Shown: one piece after another, positions 13,861-20,244 of the stretch
Layout of the letters: each line of letters opens with the position of its first letter
Position numbering within the stretch: position 1 is the stretch's first letter
IMG/VR virus record: IMGVR_UViG_3300020470_001428
Coordinates: 1 to 20,244 of that record
Strand: one strand, 5' to 3'
From: a virus
Length of the DNA stretch: 20,244 bases
Program-made: the position numbers and the translations under genes
The notes under the pieces: model-generated
The model's database searches: none
Told to the model about the DNA's origin: nothing
Seen by the model: only the letters and a program-made list of their open reading frames with translations

Positions 13861-14860
13861 TAGTCTTGGAACTTTAGAATTTTGTCAGCAGAAATACTTT
13901 TTGCAGTACAATCTCTCGTTCAAAGACAAAACTAACGCAAAAGCCTTGATGGGTACTATTACTCATAAAGTCATGCAGACTCTTGGAGACAAGAAGGTTG
14001 CAATGAATAAAGGTCTTAACATTGTAGAAGATGAAGAAACAGGAAGAGACCTAACTCTAGAAGAGTGTGACGACCTTGAGCTTCTAAATGACATAGCTTT
14101 TGATTATTACACAAATGCTTTTCCAGAGGTCAATCTTGGAGAAAAAGAAAAGAGGCAATGTCTTCGTTGGGCAGAGAAAGCAGTAGCATATCAAGATGGA
14201 TTGTTAGACCCTAGAAATCAAAACGTATTTGCTACTGAGCTATTCTTTGATATAGAAATAAAAAAGCCTTGGGCAAAATACAAGTATGAGTTTGAAGATC
14301 AAACAATCGAAGGATACCTTTCAATCAAAGGCACTGTAGACCTAATCCTTAAACAGGGAGAAGACTACTACGAGATATTAGATTACAAAACCGGAAAGCG
14401 GTTAGACTGGGCGACTGGAGAAGAGAAGACTTATGAAAAGCTACAAAAAGATACACAGCTACTTCTTTACTACTACGCTCTCAAAAATATGTATCCAGAA
14501 AGAGAATTTTCAGTAAGCATATATTACATCAATGCTGGCGGATTATTCTCGATGGTATTTGATGAAAGTGACTATGAAAAAGCTGAATCAATACTAAGGA
14601 AGAAGTTTGAGCAGATAAGAGACATCCAACAACCTAGACTTCTTTCTAATGAACACTCACATTGGAAATGTCAGAAGCTTTGTAGATTCAGTAGCGAATA
14701 CGAAGACTCAGGAAAAAGCATTTGCCAACATATAAGAGATGAAATCAAAGAAAAAGGCGTAGTCAAAGTTGTTGAAGAATACGGAAAAATAGAAAAGATT
14801 GCCACTTACGGTGATGGTGGCGGTAGACTAGCAGACACAGAAGAAAAGGATAAAAAATGA
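13835..14860 (+). CDS. Cas4/RecB-type PD-(D/E)XK exonuclease, probably with a cysteine-bound metal cluster
   Basis: A 341-residue nuclease of the RecB/Cas4 group. Visible features: SSSLGTLEFCQQKYFLQY (8-25, with C17), H44 (GTITHKVM), D169 (GTVDLIL), D183-Y-K185 (EILDYKTGK), and the QxxxY motif Q208...Y212 (TQLLLYYYAL). Three late cysteines, C279, C283 and C297 (HWKCQKLC and SICQH), join C17 in the one-plus-three arrangement that holds a [4Fe-4S] cluster in Cas4 and AddB. No cas genes or repeats are nearby, so a replication or recombination nuclease is more likely than CRISPR adaptation. The C-terminus is a charged tail. The gene overlaps the previous one by 26 nt. Confidence 0.85.
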   Translation: MIVCYHRSSSLGTLEFCQQKYFLQYNLSFKDKTNAKALMGTITHKVMQTLGDKKVAMNKGLNIVEDEETGRDLTLEECDDLELLNDIAFDYYTNAFPEVNLGEKEKRQCLRWAEKAVAYQDGLLDPRNQNVFATELFFDIEIKKPWAKYKYEFEDQTIEGYLSIKGTVDLILKQGEDYYEILDYKTGKRLDWATGEEKTYEKLQKDTQLLLYYYALKNMYPEREFSVSIYYINAGGLFSMVFDESDYEKAESILRKKFEQIRDIQQPRLLSNEHSHWKCQKLCRFSSEYEDSGKSICQHIRDEIKEKGVVKVVEEYGKIEKIATYGDGGGRLADTEEKDKK

Positions 14861-15555
14861 ATCAGCAAATAGACGGAAATATCAAAGGTCATCCGAGAAG
14901 GTCTTCTAATGGTCAAGATCTTTACGTTTACTATATGCTTGGTGATAATGGTTACTTTGTTGATATTGGAGCGCATGATGGAAAAGATGGCAGTAATACA
15001 TACGCTTTAGAAAAAGCTGGATGGAATGGCATATGCGTTGAACCCAGTCCTGTTCATCAAGAATCTCTGTCTAATCATAGAGATTGCATCATTGATACTT
15101 CTTTGGTCTATGGCGAAAAAGTAAAGAAAAAATACTTCATACATAATTACGCTGAGAGGTATGAGCAGTACAAAAAACAGAAAGAGCTTCTCGAAAGCCA
15201 AGGTCATAAATTTATAAACTTCCACGCTTATTTAGGTGGAAGCGGTATTGTTGACCATCTTGATGAAGACTATGAAGACAGGCTAGAAGGCGAGTATGTA
15301 GAGCTAGAAACAACTACTTTGCTAGACATATTAAAAAGATACGACGCCCCAAGAGTAATAGAATTTTTAGATATTGACATTGAAGGAGCAGAGTTTGAAG
15401 TAATTAAAAACTTCCCCTTTGATGAATATGAGTTTAAGATAATTTGCATTGAAGTTAGACCTCACACGAGAGAGCCTATTACTGAGCATTTAACAGCGAA
15501 TGGTTATAGGTACGCTCAAGATATTGGTCAGGACGCCATATTTAGGAAAATTTGA
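14857..15555 (+). CDS. FkbM-family SAM-dependent methyltransferase
   Basis: A class I methyltransferase, 232 residues. Motif I is GYFVDIGAHDG (32-42), followed by NTYALEKAGWNGICVEP, whose acidic residue would bind the SAM ribose, and a late block EFLDIDIEGAEFEVI matching the 'DvEGaE' signature of the FkbM family. Members usually methylate sugars or small molecules, often in glycan synthesis. It lies between nuclease and polymerase genes, with ATGA and TGATG overlaps on either side, so it is co-expressed with replication. No signal peptide or membrane segment is present. The substrate is unknown: a glycosylated phage component, a host glycan or a modified base are possibilities. Confidence 0.85.
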   Translation: MNQQIDGNIKGHPRRSSNGQDLYVYYMLGDNGYFVDIGAHDGKDGSNTYALEKAGWNGICVEPSPVHQESLSNHRDCIIDTSLVYGEKVKKKYFIHNYAERYEQYKKQKELLESQGHKFINFHAYLGGSGIVDHLDEDYEDRLEGEYVELETTTLLDILKRYDAPRVIEFLDIDIEGAEFEVIKNFPFDEYEFKIICIEVRPHTREPITEHLTANGYRYAQDIGQDAIFRKI

Positions 15556-17468
15556 TGACTTGGACACCACTGCATCTACACACTCACTACAGCCTTTTGG
15601 ACGGCCTCAGTAAGCCCTCACAGGTCGCTGAGCGATGTTCTAGCTTAGGTTATACCTCTTGCGCCTTGACCGATCACGGCACTATATCAGGCGCTGTGGC
15701 CTTTACACAGGCAATGAAGAAAAAGAATATCAAGCCTATTCTTGGGTGTGAGTTTTACCTAAGCCAGCAAGATTGCAAAGTGAAGTCCGAGGAAAATAGA
15801 AGCCTCAGTCATTTATGCGTGCTTGCTAAAAACAAAAAGGGTTGGAACAATCTAATTCAAGCAGTTTCAAAAAGTAATGACGAAGAAAATTACTACTACA
15901 AGCCGAGGTTAGATCTTGCAGAATTAAACCTTTTTGCAGATGGCAACTTGATAGCTTACAGTGGGCATCTTGGTAGTGATTTAGCAAATGCAATATTTGT
16001 AGATCCAAAATCTGCTTACAATGCAAAAACAGAAGAGGAAGCTAAAAGGTATACACATCCAAACTGGGATAGTGAAGTACTGAAGATTGCAAATAGGTAT
16101 AGGACCATATTTGGCAAAGAAAACTTTTTCATTGAGATACAAGCTATTGATCAAGATAATTCTCCAGCAGCAAAGCTAGTAGTTCAAGGTCTACGATACA
16201 TAGCTAAAAAGTATAAGTTTCAAACTGTAGCTACAGCAGACTCACATTATCCAGAGAAAAAAGATGCAAACGATCAACTACTGCTCCTTTGTTCCGCATT
16301 AAAAACTACTCTGCCTAAAATCAAGAAAAAGCTAAGAGAGTCTGGAGAAGCTGCGTTTGCTGGCTTTTTAAAATCCAATAACTTTCATATTCCATCTCTT
16401 GAAGAAATACAAAATGTAAACACGGCACAAGAAATAGAAAACTCAATGCTAATAGCTAGTATGTGCGAAGACTACAACATACTAGGTAAGCCAATGCTTC
16501 CTAAATTCAAATGCCCGAAGGACTTCTCAGAAGACCAATATCTGAGACATCTATGTAGAGAAGGCTGGAAAAGCAGATTAGCCCCAACAGGAAAAGTAAA
16601 TACCGAACAAAGTAAACAAGTATATGCAGATCAAATCAAGAAAGAACTTGATGTTATCAGTGATGCAAACTTAGCTGGCTACTTTTTAATAGTTAGAGAC
16701 ATTGTTAACAGTGTAGTTGATAAGAATCATATTCCCGGACCGGGAAGAGGCTCTGCTGCTGGATGTTTAGTATCATACTTAGTAGGAATAACACAGGTTG
16801 ACCCAATTGATTATGGCTTATTGTTTGAACGTTTTTACAATGCGGGAAGAAATACTGAAGACCATGTATCCCTGCCTGATATTGATATAGATGTTCCAGC
16901 TAATAAAAGAGATGAAACAATAGACTATATACGAAGTAAGTATGGAAGTGAAAAAGTCGGACAGATGGTAACATTTGGAAGATTGCAAGGTCGAGGCGCA
17001 ATTAAAGAAGTTTTGAGAATGAATGAAGCTTGCGGCTATGACCAAATGAACGAAATAACAAAAAGTCTTCCGCATGAGCATGAAGTATCCGACCAATTAG
17101 CAGAGATGGATAACCCATCTGTAATTAAGTGGACTCTCATGAACCAACCAGAAACACTTCGTGGCTATTGTAGATTAAATGATGATGGTGTTCTTGAAGG
17201 CGATTACGCTAAATTTTTCGATCAGGCTATGAGAATAGAGGGGACTTTTAAGTCACAAGGTAAACATGCCGCTGGCGTAGTAATATCCTCTCATGATCTC
17301 AATGATGTTTGCCCAATGGTAAGAGACAAAAGAGGTAGCGAGAAGATAGCTGGAATGGAAATGAATGATTTAGAATCTATGGGTCATGTAAAATTCGACA
17401 TTCTTGGTATTTCACTAATGGATAAAATGATGGGAATTAGAGATCAACTAAAGGAAAGACATGGATAG
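15555..17468 (+). CDS. dnaE: DNA polymerase III alpha subunit, N-terminal half (PHP + palm with all catalytic Asp)
   Basis: The first piece of a split replicative polymerase, 637 residues. A PHP domain (about 1-270) opens with HLHTHYSLLDG (H7, H9, H11) and keeps TDHG (D40, H41), E66 (GCEFY), H86 (LSHLCVL) and a late DSHY, so most metal ligands of an active PHP domain are present. The palm has PGPGRGSAAG, the catalytic pair D444 and D446 (PDIDIDV), SQGKHAAGVVISS, and the third Asp D615 (VKFDILG, E. coli D555 equivalent). The protein stops 22 residues later. The start is ATG 15555 (TGATG overlap), with AGGA at 15544-15547. The break is a clean stop codon within the family alignment, not a frameshift within a run. 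The C-terminal half is at 18343-19935. Confidence 0.93.
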   Translation: MTWTPLHLHTHYSLLDGLSKPSQVAERCSSLGYTSCALTDHGTISGAVAFTQAMKKKNIKPILGCEFYLSQQDCKVKSEENRSLSHLCVLAKNKKGWNNLIQAVSKSNDEENYYYKPRLDLAELNLFADGNLIAYSGHLGSDLANAIFVDPKSAYNAKTEEEAKRYTHPNWDSEVLKIANRYRTIFGKENFFIEIQAIDQDNSPAAKLVVQGLRYIAKKYKFQTVATADSHYPEKKDANDQLLLLCSALKTTLPKIKKKLRESGEAAFAGFLKSNNFHIPSLEEIQNVNTAQEIENSMLIASMCEDYNILGKPMLPKFKCPKDFSEDQYLRHLCREGWKSRLAPTGKVNTEQSKQVYADQIKKELDVISDANLAGYFLIVRDIVNSVVDKNHIPGPGRGSAAGCLVSYLVGITQVDPIDYGLLFERFYNAGRNTEDHVSLPDIDIDVPANKRDETIDYIRSKYGSEKVGQMVTFGRLQGRGAIKEVLRMNEACGYDQMNEITKSLPHEHEVSDQLAEMDNPSVIKWTLMNQPETLRGYCRLNDDGVLEGDYAKFFDQAMRIEGTFKSQGKHAAGVVISSHDLNDVCPMVRDKRGSEKIAGMEMNDLESMGHVKFDILGISLMDKMMGIRDQLKERHG

Positions 17469-17682
17469 GAAGACTAGCTACAGGCAAAACATAAAAGACA
17501 AGATTGAGTCAGGTAGGTATGTAGACTACAAAGGGCTAACTATTTGCAGGATAAATGACTTCTATCCCCTTATGCACAAAAAAATCAGATATCAAGTACA
17601 CTCTTATTTTTTCAGCAAGTTATATGAAGATGTTGATGAAGCGTTAGACAAATTTTTTGAAATTAGAAGGAAGATAAGATGA
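17461..17682 (+). CDS. Small hypothetical protein inserted in the split polymerase locus, 73 aa
   Basis: A 73-residue basic protein lying between the two polymerase halves. It starts at ATG 17461, with an excellent ribosome site AAAGGA at 17450-17455, overlaps the first half by 8 nt and ends in an ATGA overlap with the exonuclease. The sequence is rich in Lys, Arg and Tyr (DRKTSYRQNIKDKIESG, then a C-terminal helix VDEALDKFFEIRRKIR). I recognise no motif, and it is not an intein fragment or a recognisable piece of DnaE. It could be an accessory subunit bridging the polymerase parts, but only position suggests that. Confidence 0.75.
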   Translation: MDRKTSYRQNIKDKIESGRYVDYKGLTICRINDFYPLMHKKIRYQVHSYFFSKLYEDVDEALDKFFEIRRKIR

Positions 17683-18362
17683 ATTATAAAGACATTATTG
17701 TTTTTGATTTTGAAACGGGTTCTAGAAATCCAGAAAAAACGCAGCCTATACAAATTGCGGCTGTTGCCATACATGGCCGTAAGTTGACCGTCCAGCCAGA
17801 CGGTTACTTTGAAAGCTTGATTAGACCTATATTGGACGACGAAGAAGCAATCAAGATGGGACTAGATCCTATTCAAGATGAAGCATTAGCTGTAAATGGC
17901 AAAACAAGAGCAGAGCTTGCGAAAGCTCCTTCAGAACGGACTGTATGGAAAAAGTTCACAAACTTTGTAAATAAATACAACTGGAAAGGAACTCCTTACT
18001 TCGCTCCGATTGCAGCGGGTTATAATATCGTTGGTTTTGATATGCCGATTGTTCAAAGAATGTGTGAACTATATGGGCCAATCGACAAGAAGACAGGAAA
18101 GCAGACACTCTTTAACAAAATCCACAGGATTGACGTAATGGATAACGTCTGGATGTGGATGGAAAACAATGCAGATGTTAAATCGTTAAGTATGGATTCC
18201 ATGCGAGACTTATTTGGCATGAGTAAAGAAAACGCTCATGATGCTTTGCAAGACGTTAAAGATACGGCCAACCTAATGATTGGCTTTATGAAACTACATA
18301 GAAGAATTGCGCCGAAGATTAAATTTGAAAAGGCTTTTGCTGATGGAAACCTCCACATTTGA
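17679..18362 (+). CDS. DEDDh 3'-5' exonuclease (DnaQ/epsilon-like)
   Basis: A 227-residue proofreading-type exonuclease. ExoI is D10-F-E12-T-G (VFDFETGS). ExoII holds N116 and D121 (AGYNIVGFD). ExoIII is H187-DALQ-D192 (AHDALQDV), where H-x4-D marks the DEDDh subtype to which DnaQ and the PolC exonuclease belong. It likely removes mismatched 3' ends for the split polymerase whose two halves flank it; the ribosome site AGAAGGAAG at 17665-17673 and ATGA overlap give coupled expression. No clamp-binding peptide is obvious. The C-terminal tail KFEKAFADGNLHI overlaps the start of the second polymerase half by 20 nt. Confidence 0.92.
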   Translation: MNYKDIIVFDFETGSRNPEKTQPIQIAAVAIHGRKLTVQPDGYFESLIRPILDDEEAIKMGLDPIQDEALAVNGKTRAELAKAPSERTVWKKFTNFVNKYNWKGTPYFAPIAAGYNIVGFDMPIVQRMCELYGPIDKKTGKQTLFNKIHRIDVMDNVWMWMENNADVKSLSMDSMRDLFGMSKENAHDALQDVKDTANLMIGFMKLHRRIAPKIKFEKAFADGNLHI

Positions 18363-19935
18363 ACCGCTTGAACTTGGATTTGAAGATGAAAAAGCTTGGG
18401 ATCTAATATGCTCAGGAAAAACAAAAGGTGTTTTTCAGCTAGAGAGCAACTTAGGTAAGTCTTGGGCCAAAAGAGTTCAGCCAAAAAACATTGAAGAACT
18501 ATCTGCTCTAATATCAATTATTAGACCGGGAACATTGAAAGCCATCGTAGATGGTAAATCAATGACTCAGCACTATGTTGATAGGAAGAACGGAGTGCAA
18601 GAAATAACTTATCTTCACCCGTCCCTTGAGCCAATCCTCAAGAAAACTCAAGGAGTTCTTGTATACCAAGAGCAGTCTATGCAGATTGCACAACAATTGG
18701 CAGGGTTCAACCTTCAAGAAGCTGACAATCTTCGCAAGGCTATTGGTAAGAAAAAAGCAGACTTGATGGCTAAGGTAAAAGAGGACTTTTTAAAAGGAGC
18801 CTCCGAACAAGGCATCATCACGACAGAAGAGGCTGAAGAGATTTTTAGCTGGATTGAGAAATCTAGTCGTTATGCTTTTAATAAATCCCATGCTGTATCT
18901 TATGCAATATGTGCATATTGGAGCGCTTATGCTAAGGCTCACTTTCCGCTAGAATTTTATTGTAACTACCTCATTCATTCTTCTGGCAAGCCAGATCCGC
19001 AACAAGAAGTTAGAGAGCTAGTTAACGATGCAAAGAATTTAGAGATATATGTAAATCCTCCATCAATAAAAGCTCTGAATACCCAAACAGACATAATCGA
19101 AGACCGCATACATTTCGGTCTAATAGACATAAAATCTGTTGGGGCAAAACAAATTGATAAGTTTAGGGATGCGGTAGTATATCTAGAGCAAACTATAGGC
19201 AAGCAACTTTGTGAAGTTAATTGGTATGAGTTTCTCATTTTAGCTTCGCAAAAAATCAACTCAAGAATGTTGACAGCTTTAATATCAGTAGGGTTTTTTG
19301 CAGATCTTCCAGAGAGTAGACAGCAAATGTTAGATGAGTTTGATACTTGGTCAAACATAACTAAAAAAGAAGCTGAATGGGCAGAAAGCAACTTTGAAAA
19401 TTACGAAAGTTTAGTAGATTTGCTGAAAGCTATGGCTCCTGTTAAGAAAGATGGAGGAGCAGCATTTAACTCCAAACGCTCTCAAATAATTTCTGATTTA
19501 GTTATCCAATGTGAAAACCCATCCTATTCTCTAAAAGACGATCCTGAATGGGTTATCAGAACCGAAGAGAACTACTTAGGAATAGGACTTACATATTCAA
19601 GGGTAGAAGCCTATGACACTAGCTTAGCCAACACCACTATTAAAGAATTTATTAATGGTAAAAGGGGCAATGTTAAAATGGCCGTTACTATAAATGAGGT
19701 CAAGAGATACACTGCTAAAAAGGGTAAAGCTATTGGCCTTGAAATGGCCTTTTTATGCGTCGAGGATACTACAGGTACTATGGACAGCGTTACAGTATTT
19801 AGTGATCAATGGGATAAATACAAAAACATTTTATACGAAGGGAATAACGTGATCTTGATTGGACAAGATTCAAAAAAGAAAAGATACCAATTAGACGATG
19901 GCTTCATAGTCAATGAAGTCATTGAGTTACGTTGA
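18343..19935 (+). CDS. dnaE: DNA polymerase III alpha subunit, C-terminal half (fingers, HhH, OB-fold)
   Basis: The second piece of the split polymerase, 530 residues from ATG 18343, with AAGG at 18330-18333. It resumes where the first ends: an LGFEDEKAWDLICSGKTKGVFQLES opening corresponds to the E. coli region after FDFLGL, where DDKKSFDML and VFQLES occur. The fingers contain YAFNKSHAVSYA (177-188) and LGKKKADLM-like charged segments; a helix-hairpin-helix-type region follows near GVGAKQIDKFRD; an OB-fold begins near 443 (VKRYTAKKGKAIG, then EMAFLCVEDTTG). 637 + 530 = 1167 residues, close to full-length E. coli DnaE (1160), so nothing large is missing. TTG 18307 is also in frame but lacks support. 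Confidence 0.93.
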   Translation: METSTFEPLELGFEDEKAWDLICSGKTKGVFQLESNLGKSWAKRVQPKNIEELSALISIIRPGTLKAIVDGKSMTQHYVDRKNGVQEITYLHPSLEPILKKTQGVLVYQEQSMQIAQQLAGFNLQEADNLRKAIGKKKADLMAKVKEDFLKGASEQGIITTEEAEEIFSWIEKSSRYAFNKSHAVSYAICAYWSAYAKAHFPLEFYCNYLIHSSGKPDPQQEVRELVNDAKNLEIYVNPPSIKALNTQTDIIEDRIHFGLIDIKSVGAKQIDKFRDAVVYLEQTIGKQLCEVNWYEFLILASQKINSRMLTALISVGFFADLPESRQQMLDEFDTWSNITKKEAEWAESNFENYESLVDLLKAMAPVKKDGGAAFNSKRSQIISDLVIQCENPSYSLKDDPEWVIRTEENYLGIGLTYSRVEAYDTSLANTTIKEFINGKRGNVKMAVTINEVKRYTAKKGKAIGLEMAFLCVEDTTGTMDSVTVFSDQWDKYKNILYEGNNVILIGQDSKKKRYQLDDGFIVNEVIELR

Positions 19936-19995: not shown

Positions 19996-20244
19996 ATGAA
20001 TACGATTTCAAACTATTGCAGATTTATCGGAAGATTAACAGACGACCCTAAAGTTGTCGAATTTGAAAATACAAATCTTTGTACTTTTACTTTAGCTATT
20101 AATGAATATAGAAAAGAAAAGAACGGAGAAAAAAAGAAGACTGTCAACTATTTTGATTTTGAAGCTTGGGATTCTGGCGGAGAGACTATTAGTCGATACT
20201 GTTCTAAAGGAGATATAATTGATTTAGTTGCTTCTGCAAGAAAT
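19996..20244 (+). CDS. ssb: Single-stranded DNA-binding protein (3' cut by window)
   Basis: The first 83 residues of a bacterial-type SSB. It begins MNTISNYCRFIGRLTDDPKV and continues LCTFTLAINEYRKEK, TVNYFDFEAWDSGG and ISRYCSKGDIIDLVAS, which are the strands of the OB-fold that binds ssDNA, including the W and F residues that stack on bases. SSB coats fork DNA and interacts with the recombinase and polymerase machinery. The ribosome site is weak (GCGAGAC upstream). The acidic C-terminal tail is beyond the window. Confidence 0.93.
   Translation, partial: MNTISNYCRFIGRLTDDPKVVEFENTNLCTFTLAINEYRKEKNGEKKKTVNYFDFEAWDSGGETISRYCSKGDIIDLVASARN

What the first reader, a model, noticed from the sequence alone, without database searches (positions are those of the whole stretch)
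15555..19935. Split Pol III alpha gene with a DEDDh exonuclease gene inserted between its halves
dnaE is broken into two ORFs totalling about 1167 residues, near full length. The break follows the third catalytic Asp (D615) by 22 residues, so the first protein keeps PHP and the entire palm active site and the second carries fingers and OB-fold. A separate proofreading-type exonuclease and a 73-aa gene sit exactly at the break, all with overlapping starts and stops. In Gram-positive PolC the exonuclease is inserted inside the polymerase chain; here a similar insertion exists at the gene level. The two halves must associate for activity, which would be an unusual two-piece replicase with its proofreader built in stoichiometrically.
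Basis: partly seen in the sequence, partly recalled or inferred. Interest (0 to 1): 0.82.

Follow-up and report, generated by a model that had tools for sequence, protein, structure and literature searches.

The report
Two-piece viral DNA copying enzyme
Hundreds of uncultured viruses carry their main DNA-copying enzyme as two separate proteins, cut at one exact hinge with the proofreading gene between the halves; the cut is old, maintained and apparently functional, so the two pieces must find each other for the virus to replicate.

Summary
The dnaE halves are 637 and 530 aa. The cut lies 22 residues after the third catalytic Asp (D615), in the palm/fingers linker. A 73-aa ORF and a DEDDh exonuclease lie between, all overlapping. 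On TIGR00594 the halves match positions 1-576 and 581-1020, so nothing is missing.

It is neither an artefact nor decay. The split with the exonuclease between occurs in 240 distinct viral lineages at 95% identity, against one relative whose junction is unbroken. Catalytic residues of palm and exonuclease are invariant in 172/172 and dN/dS is about 0.01-0.1. Sixteen long records (79-176 kb) hold no other A-, B- or C-family polymerase. No intein, known RNA element or excision repeat was found. An unrelated cultured phage, phiT1, is split at the same linker.

Best explanation: an obligate, non-covalent two-subunit Pol III alpha with a separate epsilon-like proofreader, co-translated from one operon.

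Not supported: the PolC analogy and a built-in, stoichiometric proofreader. The exonuclease lies outside dnaE in the unbroken relative, phiT1's break lacks it, and the 73-aa gene is absent from over half of the lineages. Assembly and activity are inferred.

The parts
15555..17468 (+). dnaE-N: Pol III alpha N-terminal half, PHP + palm + thumb, 637 aa, ends 22 residues after catalytic D615
   Evidence: Pfam/PHROG/NCBIfam matches; D442/D444/D615 invariant in 172/172 relatives; dN/dS 0.02-0.05
17461..17682 (+). 73-aa ORF of unknown function; predicted alpha-beta4-alpha fold; C..YQVH..EAxDKF motifs conserved
   Evidence: no family match; conserved in 74 of 171 distinct loci; AlphaFold pLDDT 89.8, no PDB fold match
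17679..18362 (+). exo: DEDDh 3'-5' exonuclease, epsilon-like, 227 aa, free-standing gene
   Evidence: RNase_T 2.5e-16, phrog_192 'DNA polymerase exonuclease subunit' 6e-25; D10/E12/D121/H187/D192 invariant 172/172
18343..19935 (+). dnaE-C: Pol III alpha C-terminal half, fingers + HhH + OB-fold, 530 aa; starts inside the 3' end of exo (20-nt overlap, the commonest value among relatives)
   Evidence: PF17657 3e-49; AlphaFold pLDDT 87, best PDB match M. tuberculosis DnaE 7pu7 TMq 0.64; overlap of 20 nt in 60 of 171 distinct loci
17469..18342 (+). the interruption: 874 nt between the dnaE-N stop and the dnaE-C start, almost wholly coding, with no intein, Rfam RNA or flanking repeats

Best explanation
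The locus encodes an obligate two-subunit C-family (DnaE-type) replicase. One polypeptide carries PHP, palm and thumb with all three catalytic aspartates. A second carries fingers, HhH and OB-fold, which bind incoming nucleotide and template. The cut lies in the short palm-to-fingers linker, so each protein is made of whole domains. The two are translated from adjacent, overlapping genes of one operon and are inferred to dock non-covalently, recreating the normal alpha fold. A separate epsilon-like DEDDh exonuclease, encoded between them, is inferred to supply proofreading. Shown: the gene structure, its conservation, purifying selection, intact catalytic residues and absence of another polymerase in long relatives. 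Inferred: association of the halves, polymerase activity, and functional partnership with the exonuclease.
For: Domain content and clean cut. Split with exo between in 497 loci, 240 distinct at 95% identity. Invariant palm and exo catalytic residues in 172/172. dN/dS about 0.01-0.1 on all four ORFs. Sixteen long records each hold one palm, one fingers and no PolA or PolB. No intein in the window halves; no Rfam element and no flanking repeats. Independent split at the same linker in cultured phage phiT1, which lies in a different part of the tree. L487 shows the same linker as one continuous chain, with the window's halves aligning on either side.
Against: No biochemical, transcript or complex-structure evidence. 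Most records are fragments (the longest used are 79-176 kb 'linear'), so a host or missing-segment polymerase cannot be fully excluded. No sliding clamp was found with PF00712, so the surrounding replisome is incompletely understood.
Confidence: 0.86

Rival explanations
1. The halves are rejoined covalently after all, by protein trans-splicing (as in cyanobacterial DnaE), RNA splicing, or ribosomal frameshift/bypass.
For: Relatives L018-L021 carry intein sequence in both dnaE halves, at other positions, and L487 has a LAGLIDADG ORF in its palm, so dnaE of this virus group is a target of such elements.
Against: No intein motif at the end of N or start of C in the window. The gap is filled with two overlapping, conserved genes. 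No Rfam element in the window or seven relatives. The distance between N and exo varies from overlap to 2.5 kb among relatives.
Confidence: 0.06
2. Assembly artefact or a decaying, inactivated dnaE.
For: A single metagenomic contig viewed alone would allow it.
Against: Same arrangement in 240 distinct lineages from many independent assemblies; dN/dS about 0.01-0.1; all catalytic residues invariant; no other polymerase.
Confidence: 0.01
3. Three-part holo-core: the exonuclease (and the 73-aa protein where present) is a structural bridge between the halves, required for polymerase activity and in fixed 1:1:1 ratio. (A sub-case of the main explanation, not exclusive of it.)
For: The exonuclease sits in the break in 497 of 499 scorable loci. 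104 of 171 distinct loci have exo and dnaE-C overlapping and 39 have both junctions tight, so coupled translation is likely.
Against: phiT1 has the same split with only a 49-aa ORF and no exonuclease in the break. L487 keeps the exonuclease apart from dnaE. Methyltransferase genes also occur in the break in some relatives. Stoichiometry cannot be read from gene order.
Confidence: 0.2
4. Origin: the split arose when the exonuclease gene came to lie inside an intact dnaE, and L487 preserves the ancestral order (dnaE, ssb, then exo downstream). (About origin, so compatible with the main explanation.)
For: L487 has the junction in one ORF and the same exo gene 2.2 kb downstream, in the same PDDEXK-dnaE-ssb synteny. 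A tree with all split lineages as one clade is 6.5 log units better than the free search, p-AU 0.625.
Against: The free quick search nests L487 within the split lineages (support 86-93), which would make it a re-fusion; not decidable. It is one contig only; the dedicated search found no second one.
Confidence: 0.5

Closest known systems
Bacterial DnaE (Pol III alpha) with separate epsilon (DnaQ)
   Same: PHP, palm, thumb, fingers, HhH and OB in the same order; separate DEDDh exonuclease; N+C cover TIGR00594 1-1020 of 1022
   Different: two polypeptides cut at the palm/fingers linker; exonuclease gene between the halves; ends after the OB-fold, with the extreme C-terminal domain not matched
PolC of Gram-positive bacteria
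   Same: C-family polymerase closely tied to a DEDDh exonuclease
   Different: PolC has the exonuclease inside the PHP domain of one chain (PMC3919608); here it is a free gene between palm and fingers halves, and both halves match DnaE far better than PolC
Cyanobacterial split DnaE with split intein
   Same: dnaE encoded in two pieces
   Different: no intein in the window, so the product cannot be trans-spliced by that route
Minimal split Pol III alpha of group 2.2 jumbo phages (PMC7824862)
   Same: phage C-family polymerase in two stand-alone proteins expected to reconstitute one enzyme
   Different: there only a minimal catalytic core, distantly located genes, and a co-resident family B polymerase; here the PHP-to-OB protein in one operon and the only polymerase found
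Split PolA of OM43 phages MEP401/402 (PMC10580990) and split PolB of phage MIJ3 (PMC6892783)
   Same: phage replicase in two ORFs with another ORF between
   Different: different polymerase families; MIJ3 has a split intein, and an intron was suspected in MEP401/402
Rossellomorea phage phiT1 gp20/gp19/gp18 (PV767480)
   Same: dnaE split at the same linker, in a cultured phage
   Different: placed outside the clade, 49-aa ORF in the break, no exonuclease there

Membership tests
C-family DNA polymerase, DnaE type | PHP domain and palm with three catalytic Asp | tested here: met
   PF02811, PF07733; D442/D444/D615 invariant 172/172
C-family DNA polymerase, DnaE type | fingers, HhH, OB-fold | tested here: met
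C-family DNA polymerase, DnaE type | single polypeptide from PHP to OB | tested here: not met
   separate ORFs in different frames; 240 of 241 distinct lineages split
DEDDh exonuclease (DnaQ-like) | five catalytic residues D,E,D,H,D | tested here: met
   invariant 172/172
PolC | exonuclease inserted in PHP of the same chain | tested here: not met
   exo is a separate ORF after the palm; the PHP match runs 7-197 without it
Split-intein DnaE | N- and C-intein fragments at the junction | tested here: not met
   no intein match in the window halves; the same libraries do detect inteins in L018
Jumbo-phage minimal split Pol III (PMC7824862) | minimal core without PHP, distant genes, co-resident PolB | tested here: not met
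   PHP present, adjacent genes, no PolB in 16 long relatives
Two-subunit polymerase | the halves physically associate and are active together | not testable with these tools

The most novel reading that the evidence does not exclude
An ancient, virus-wide replicase design in which the C-family polymerase is permanently divided into a catalytic palm subunit and a fingers/OB subunit, with the palm/fingers linker as a recurrent natural fission point. The operon-encoded exonuclease (with the 73-aa protein where present) binds at the new interface, giving a core that differs in architecture from both DnaE-epsilon and PolC.
Probability: 0.25. Interest if true: 0.85.

Novelty: new variant of a known kind. 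Interest (0 to 1): 0.64.

Why it matters
A full-size replicative polymerase naturally divided between palm and fingers, kept so across hundreds of viral lineages and reached independently in a cultured phage, suggests that this linker need not be covalent. It gives natural material for testing how C-family polymerases assemble and how their proofreader docks, and for building split, switchable polymerases. Annotation pipelines that expect a single dnaE would miscall such viruses as having truncated polymerases.

Tried and rejected
Search for the exonuclease in 50,697 phage records: no match, so no cultured relative of that gene is in the collection. Rfam on the window and seven relatives, and on the L487 interruption: nothing. 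Flanking repeats for excision: none. Terminator-like sites between the genes on the coding strand: none; promoter-like sites below chance. The idea that the 73-aa protein is a theta-like (HolE) subunit was considered because of its size and place next to exo; the model is alpha-beta4-alpha with no PDB fold match, and from general knowledge theta is all-helical, so dropped. T4-type capsid PF07068 did not ring in any genome, controls included, so nothing is concluded. Bacterial genomes: the intact DnaEs are single ORFs at 30-40% identity; the one split hit, L279, is a contig in a 'Lokiarchaeota' MAG with the viral gene order, probably misbinned. Dassa et al. 2009 on fractured genes is not held.

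Full report
Observation. The window is an entire IMG/VR record of 20,244 bases. Its right part holds an operon-like run of genes on the + strand: DnaB-like helicase, primase, dNMP kinase, a 191-aa ORF, a PD-(D/E)XK nuclease, an FkbM methyltransferase, dnaE-N, a 73-aa ORF, an exonuclease and dnaE-C; by inspection an ssb-like ORF begins at 19997. The start of dnaE-N conserved among relatives is ATG 15555, giving 637 residues; dnaE-C from ATG 18343 has 530. PHP and palm are in the first, fingers, HhH and OB-fold in the second. D615 is followed by 22 residues. Overlaps are 8, 4 and 20 nt. Every number in the finding holds.

Nothing is missing at the cut. On TIGR00594 the halves match 1-576 and 581-1020, on phrog_405 41-619 and 623-1074, and on T. 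aquaticus alpha (2hpi) the matches end at 637 and resume at 648. In L487, a relative with the junction in one chain (...VMCVRDLLKVKGIDFNLDIEEIPLDCERTWALFAEGNTKG...), the window's N end (...KMMGIRDQLKERHG) and C start (METSTFEPLELGFEDEKAWDLICSGKTKG...) align by eye on either side of the linker.

It is a conserved trait. Eight searches of viral contigs and one of GTDB contigs gave loci that were annotated with profile HMMs. Of 499 loci in which the end of the palm and the start of the fingers could both be scored, 497 have separate ORFs with the exonuclease between. The other two are one contig, L487/L519, with the junction in one ORF. Collapsed at 95% identity over the fingers start this is 240 split lineages against one. 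These searches were seeded from split members, so the ratio describes this virus group, not phage DnaEs in general. The commonest exo/dnaE-C overlap is 20 nt, in 60 of 171 distinct loci, as in the window. In a tree of 26 split sequences with bacterial and phage DnaEs, the split ones fall on one side of a branch with support 100.

It is maintained. Nei-Gojobori dN/dS of window against relatives is about 0.01-0.1 for all four ORFs where synonymous sites are not saturated. The palm aspartates and the five DEDDh residues are invariant in all 172 sequences examined. Sixteen long records (79-176 kb) each hold one palm (in pieces in L200, where an intein interrupts it), one fingers and no family A or B polymerase, with positive controls ringing. 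These records are not certified complete, so this is strong but not absolute evidence that the two-piece enzyme is the replicase.

It is not rejoined by a recognisable route. No intein is detected in the window halves, while the same libraries do see intein sequence in both halves in the distant relative L018. No Rfam RNA was found in the window or seven relatives, no flanking repeats, and no terminator-like site on the coding strand. The gap length varies widely among relatives, and in some it also holds a TylF-type methyltransferase gene.

The cut can be reached independently. Cultured Rossellomorea phage phiT1 encodes DnaE as gp20 and gp18, annotated as two 'DNA polymerase III subunit alpha' genes, with a 49-aa ORF between, cut at the same linker. 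It lies outside the split clade. There is no exonuclease in that break, so the cut does not need one.

PolC's exonuclease is inserted in the PHP domain (PMC3919608), a different place, and here the exonuclease is its own gene. In L487 the exonuclease is 2.2 kb downstream of dnaE, after an ssb-like and a glycosyltransferase-like ORF (these two names are by inspection). The 73-aa gene is found in 74 of 171 distinct loci, so it is not needed for the split. Its predicted fold is confident (pLDDT 89.8) but matches nothing in the PDB.

Origin. L487 either keeps the pre-split order or has re-fused. The free quick search nests it (support 86-93), but a tree with the split lineages as one clade is 6.5 log units better and is not rejected (p-AU 0.625). 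I leave this open.

Literature. Precedents are the minimal split Pol III of jumbo phages with distantly located genes beside a PolB (PMC7824862), split PolA in OM43 phages (PMC10580990), split PolB with an intein (PMC6892783), and intein-split cyanobacterial DnaE (PMC3919608). None found describes a PHP-to-OB DnaE cut between palm and fingers with its proofreader gene in the cut. Only openly licensed papers could be searched.

Verdict. A real, conserved, very probably functional two-subunit Pol III alpha of a large uncultured virus group: a new variant of a known kind. Assembly, activity and the role of the exonuclease in the complex remain to be shown at the bench.

Noticed in passing
L361 2125-5407 (Rossellomorea phage phiT1, PV767480): Cultured phage with DnaE split at the same palm/fingers linker, with a 49-aa ORF between the halves; outside the window's clade.
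   Followed up: yes
L487 4406-5140 and 9801-10448: Relative with the palm/fingers junction unbroken and exo downstream, but its palm is interrupted just before the catalytic PDID motif by a LAGLIDADG endonuclease ORF; no Rfam intron found there.
   Followed up: partly
L018 3405-5697 and 6968-8950 (also L019-L021, L199-L201): Both dnaE halves carry intein sequence at conserved sites (GPGRG|C...HN|SAAGC and FNK|S...SN|SHAVAYG); the one in the N half is broken into separate frames and may be a split intein, making a three-piece polymerase. L093, L097 and L274 also have dnaE-N in two ORFs near residue 400.
   Followed up: partly
window 15555-16250 (PHP domain): The PHP metal-ligand residues are intact in the window and about 50 of 172 relatives but lost in most others, while exonuclease residues are never lost.
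   Followed up: partly
L009 6245-6997, L035 8688-9422: A TylF-type methyltransferase gene lies in the dnaE break between exo and dnaE-C.
   Followed up: partly
L279: A contig binned in a 'Lokiarchaeota' MAG (JABXKB010000087.1) carries the viral split dnaE with exo between; probably a misbinned virus, 95% identical in DnaE-C to viral contigs L366-L368.
   Followed up: partly
window 14857-15555: An FkbM methyltransferase gene sits between the PD-(D/E)XK nuclease and dnaE-N in the window and L005/L026 but is absent from L002-L004, whose DnaE is 97% identical.
   Followed up: no
L365 2022-5635 (Bacillus phage vB_BpsS-140): Its dnaE is in two overlapping ORFs, broken near the PHP/palm boundary, and has no annotated gene; a split or a frameshift.
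   Followed up: no
records of L016, L160, L262 and 13 others: No beta clamp (PF00712) found in 16 long relatives although they encode a DnaE-type replicase.
   Followed up: partly
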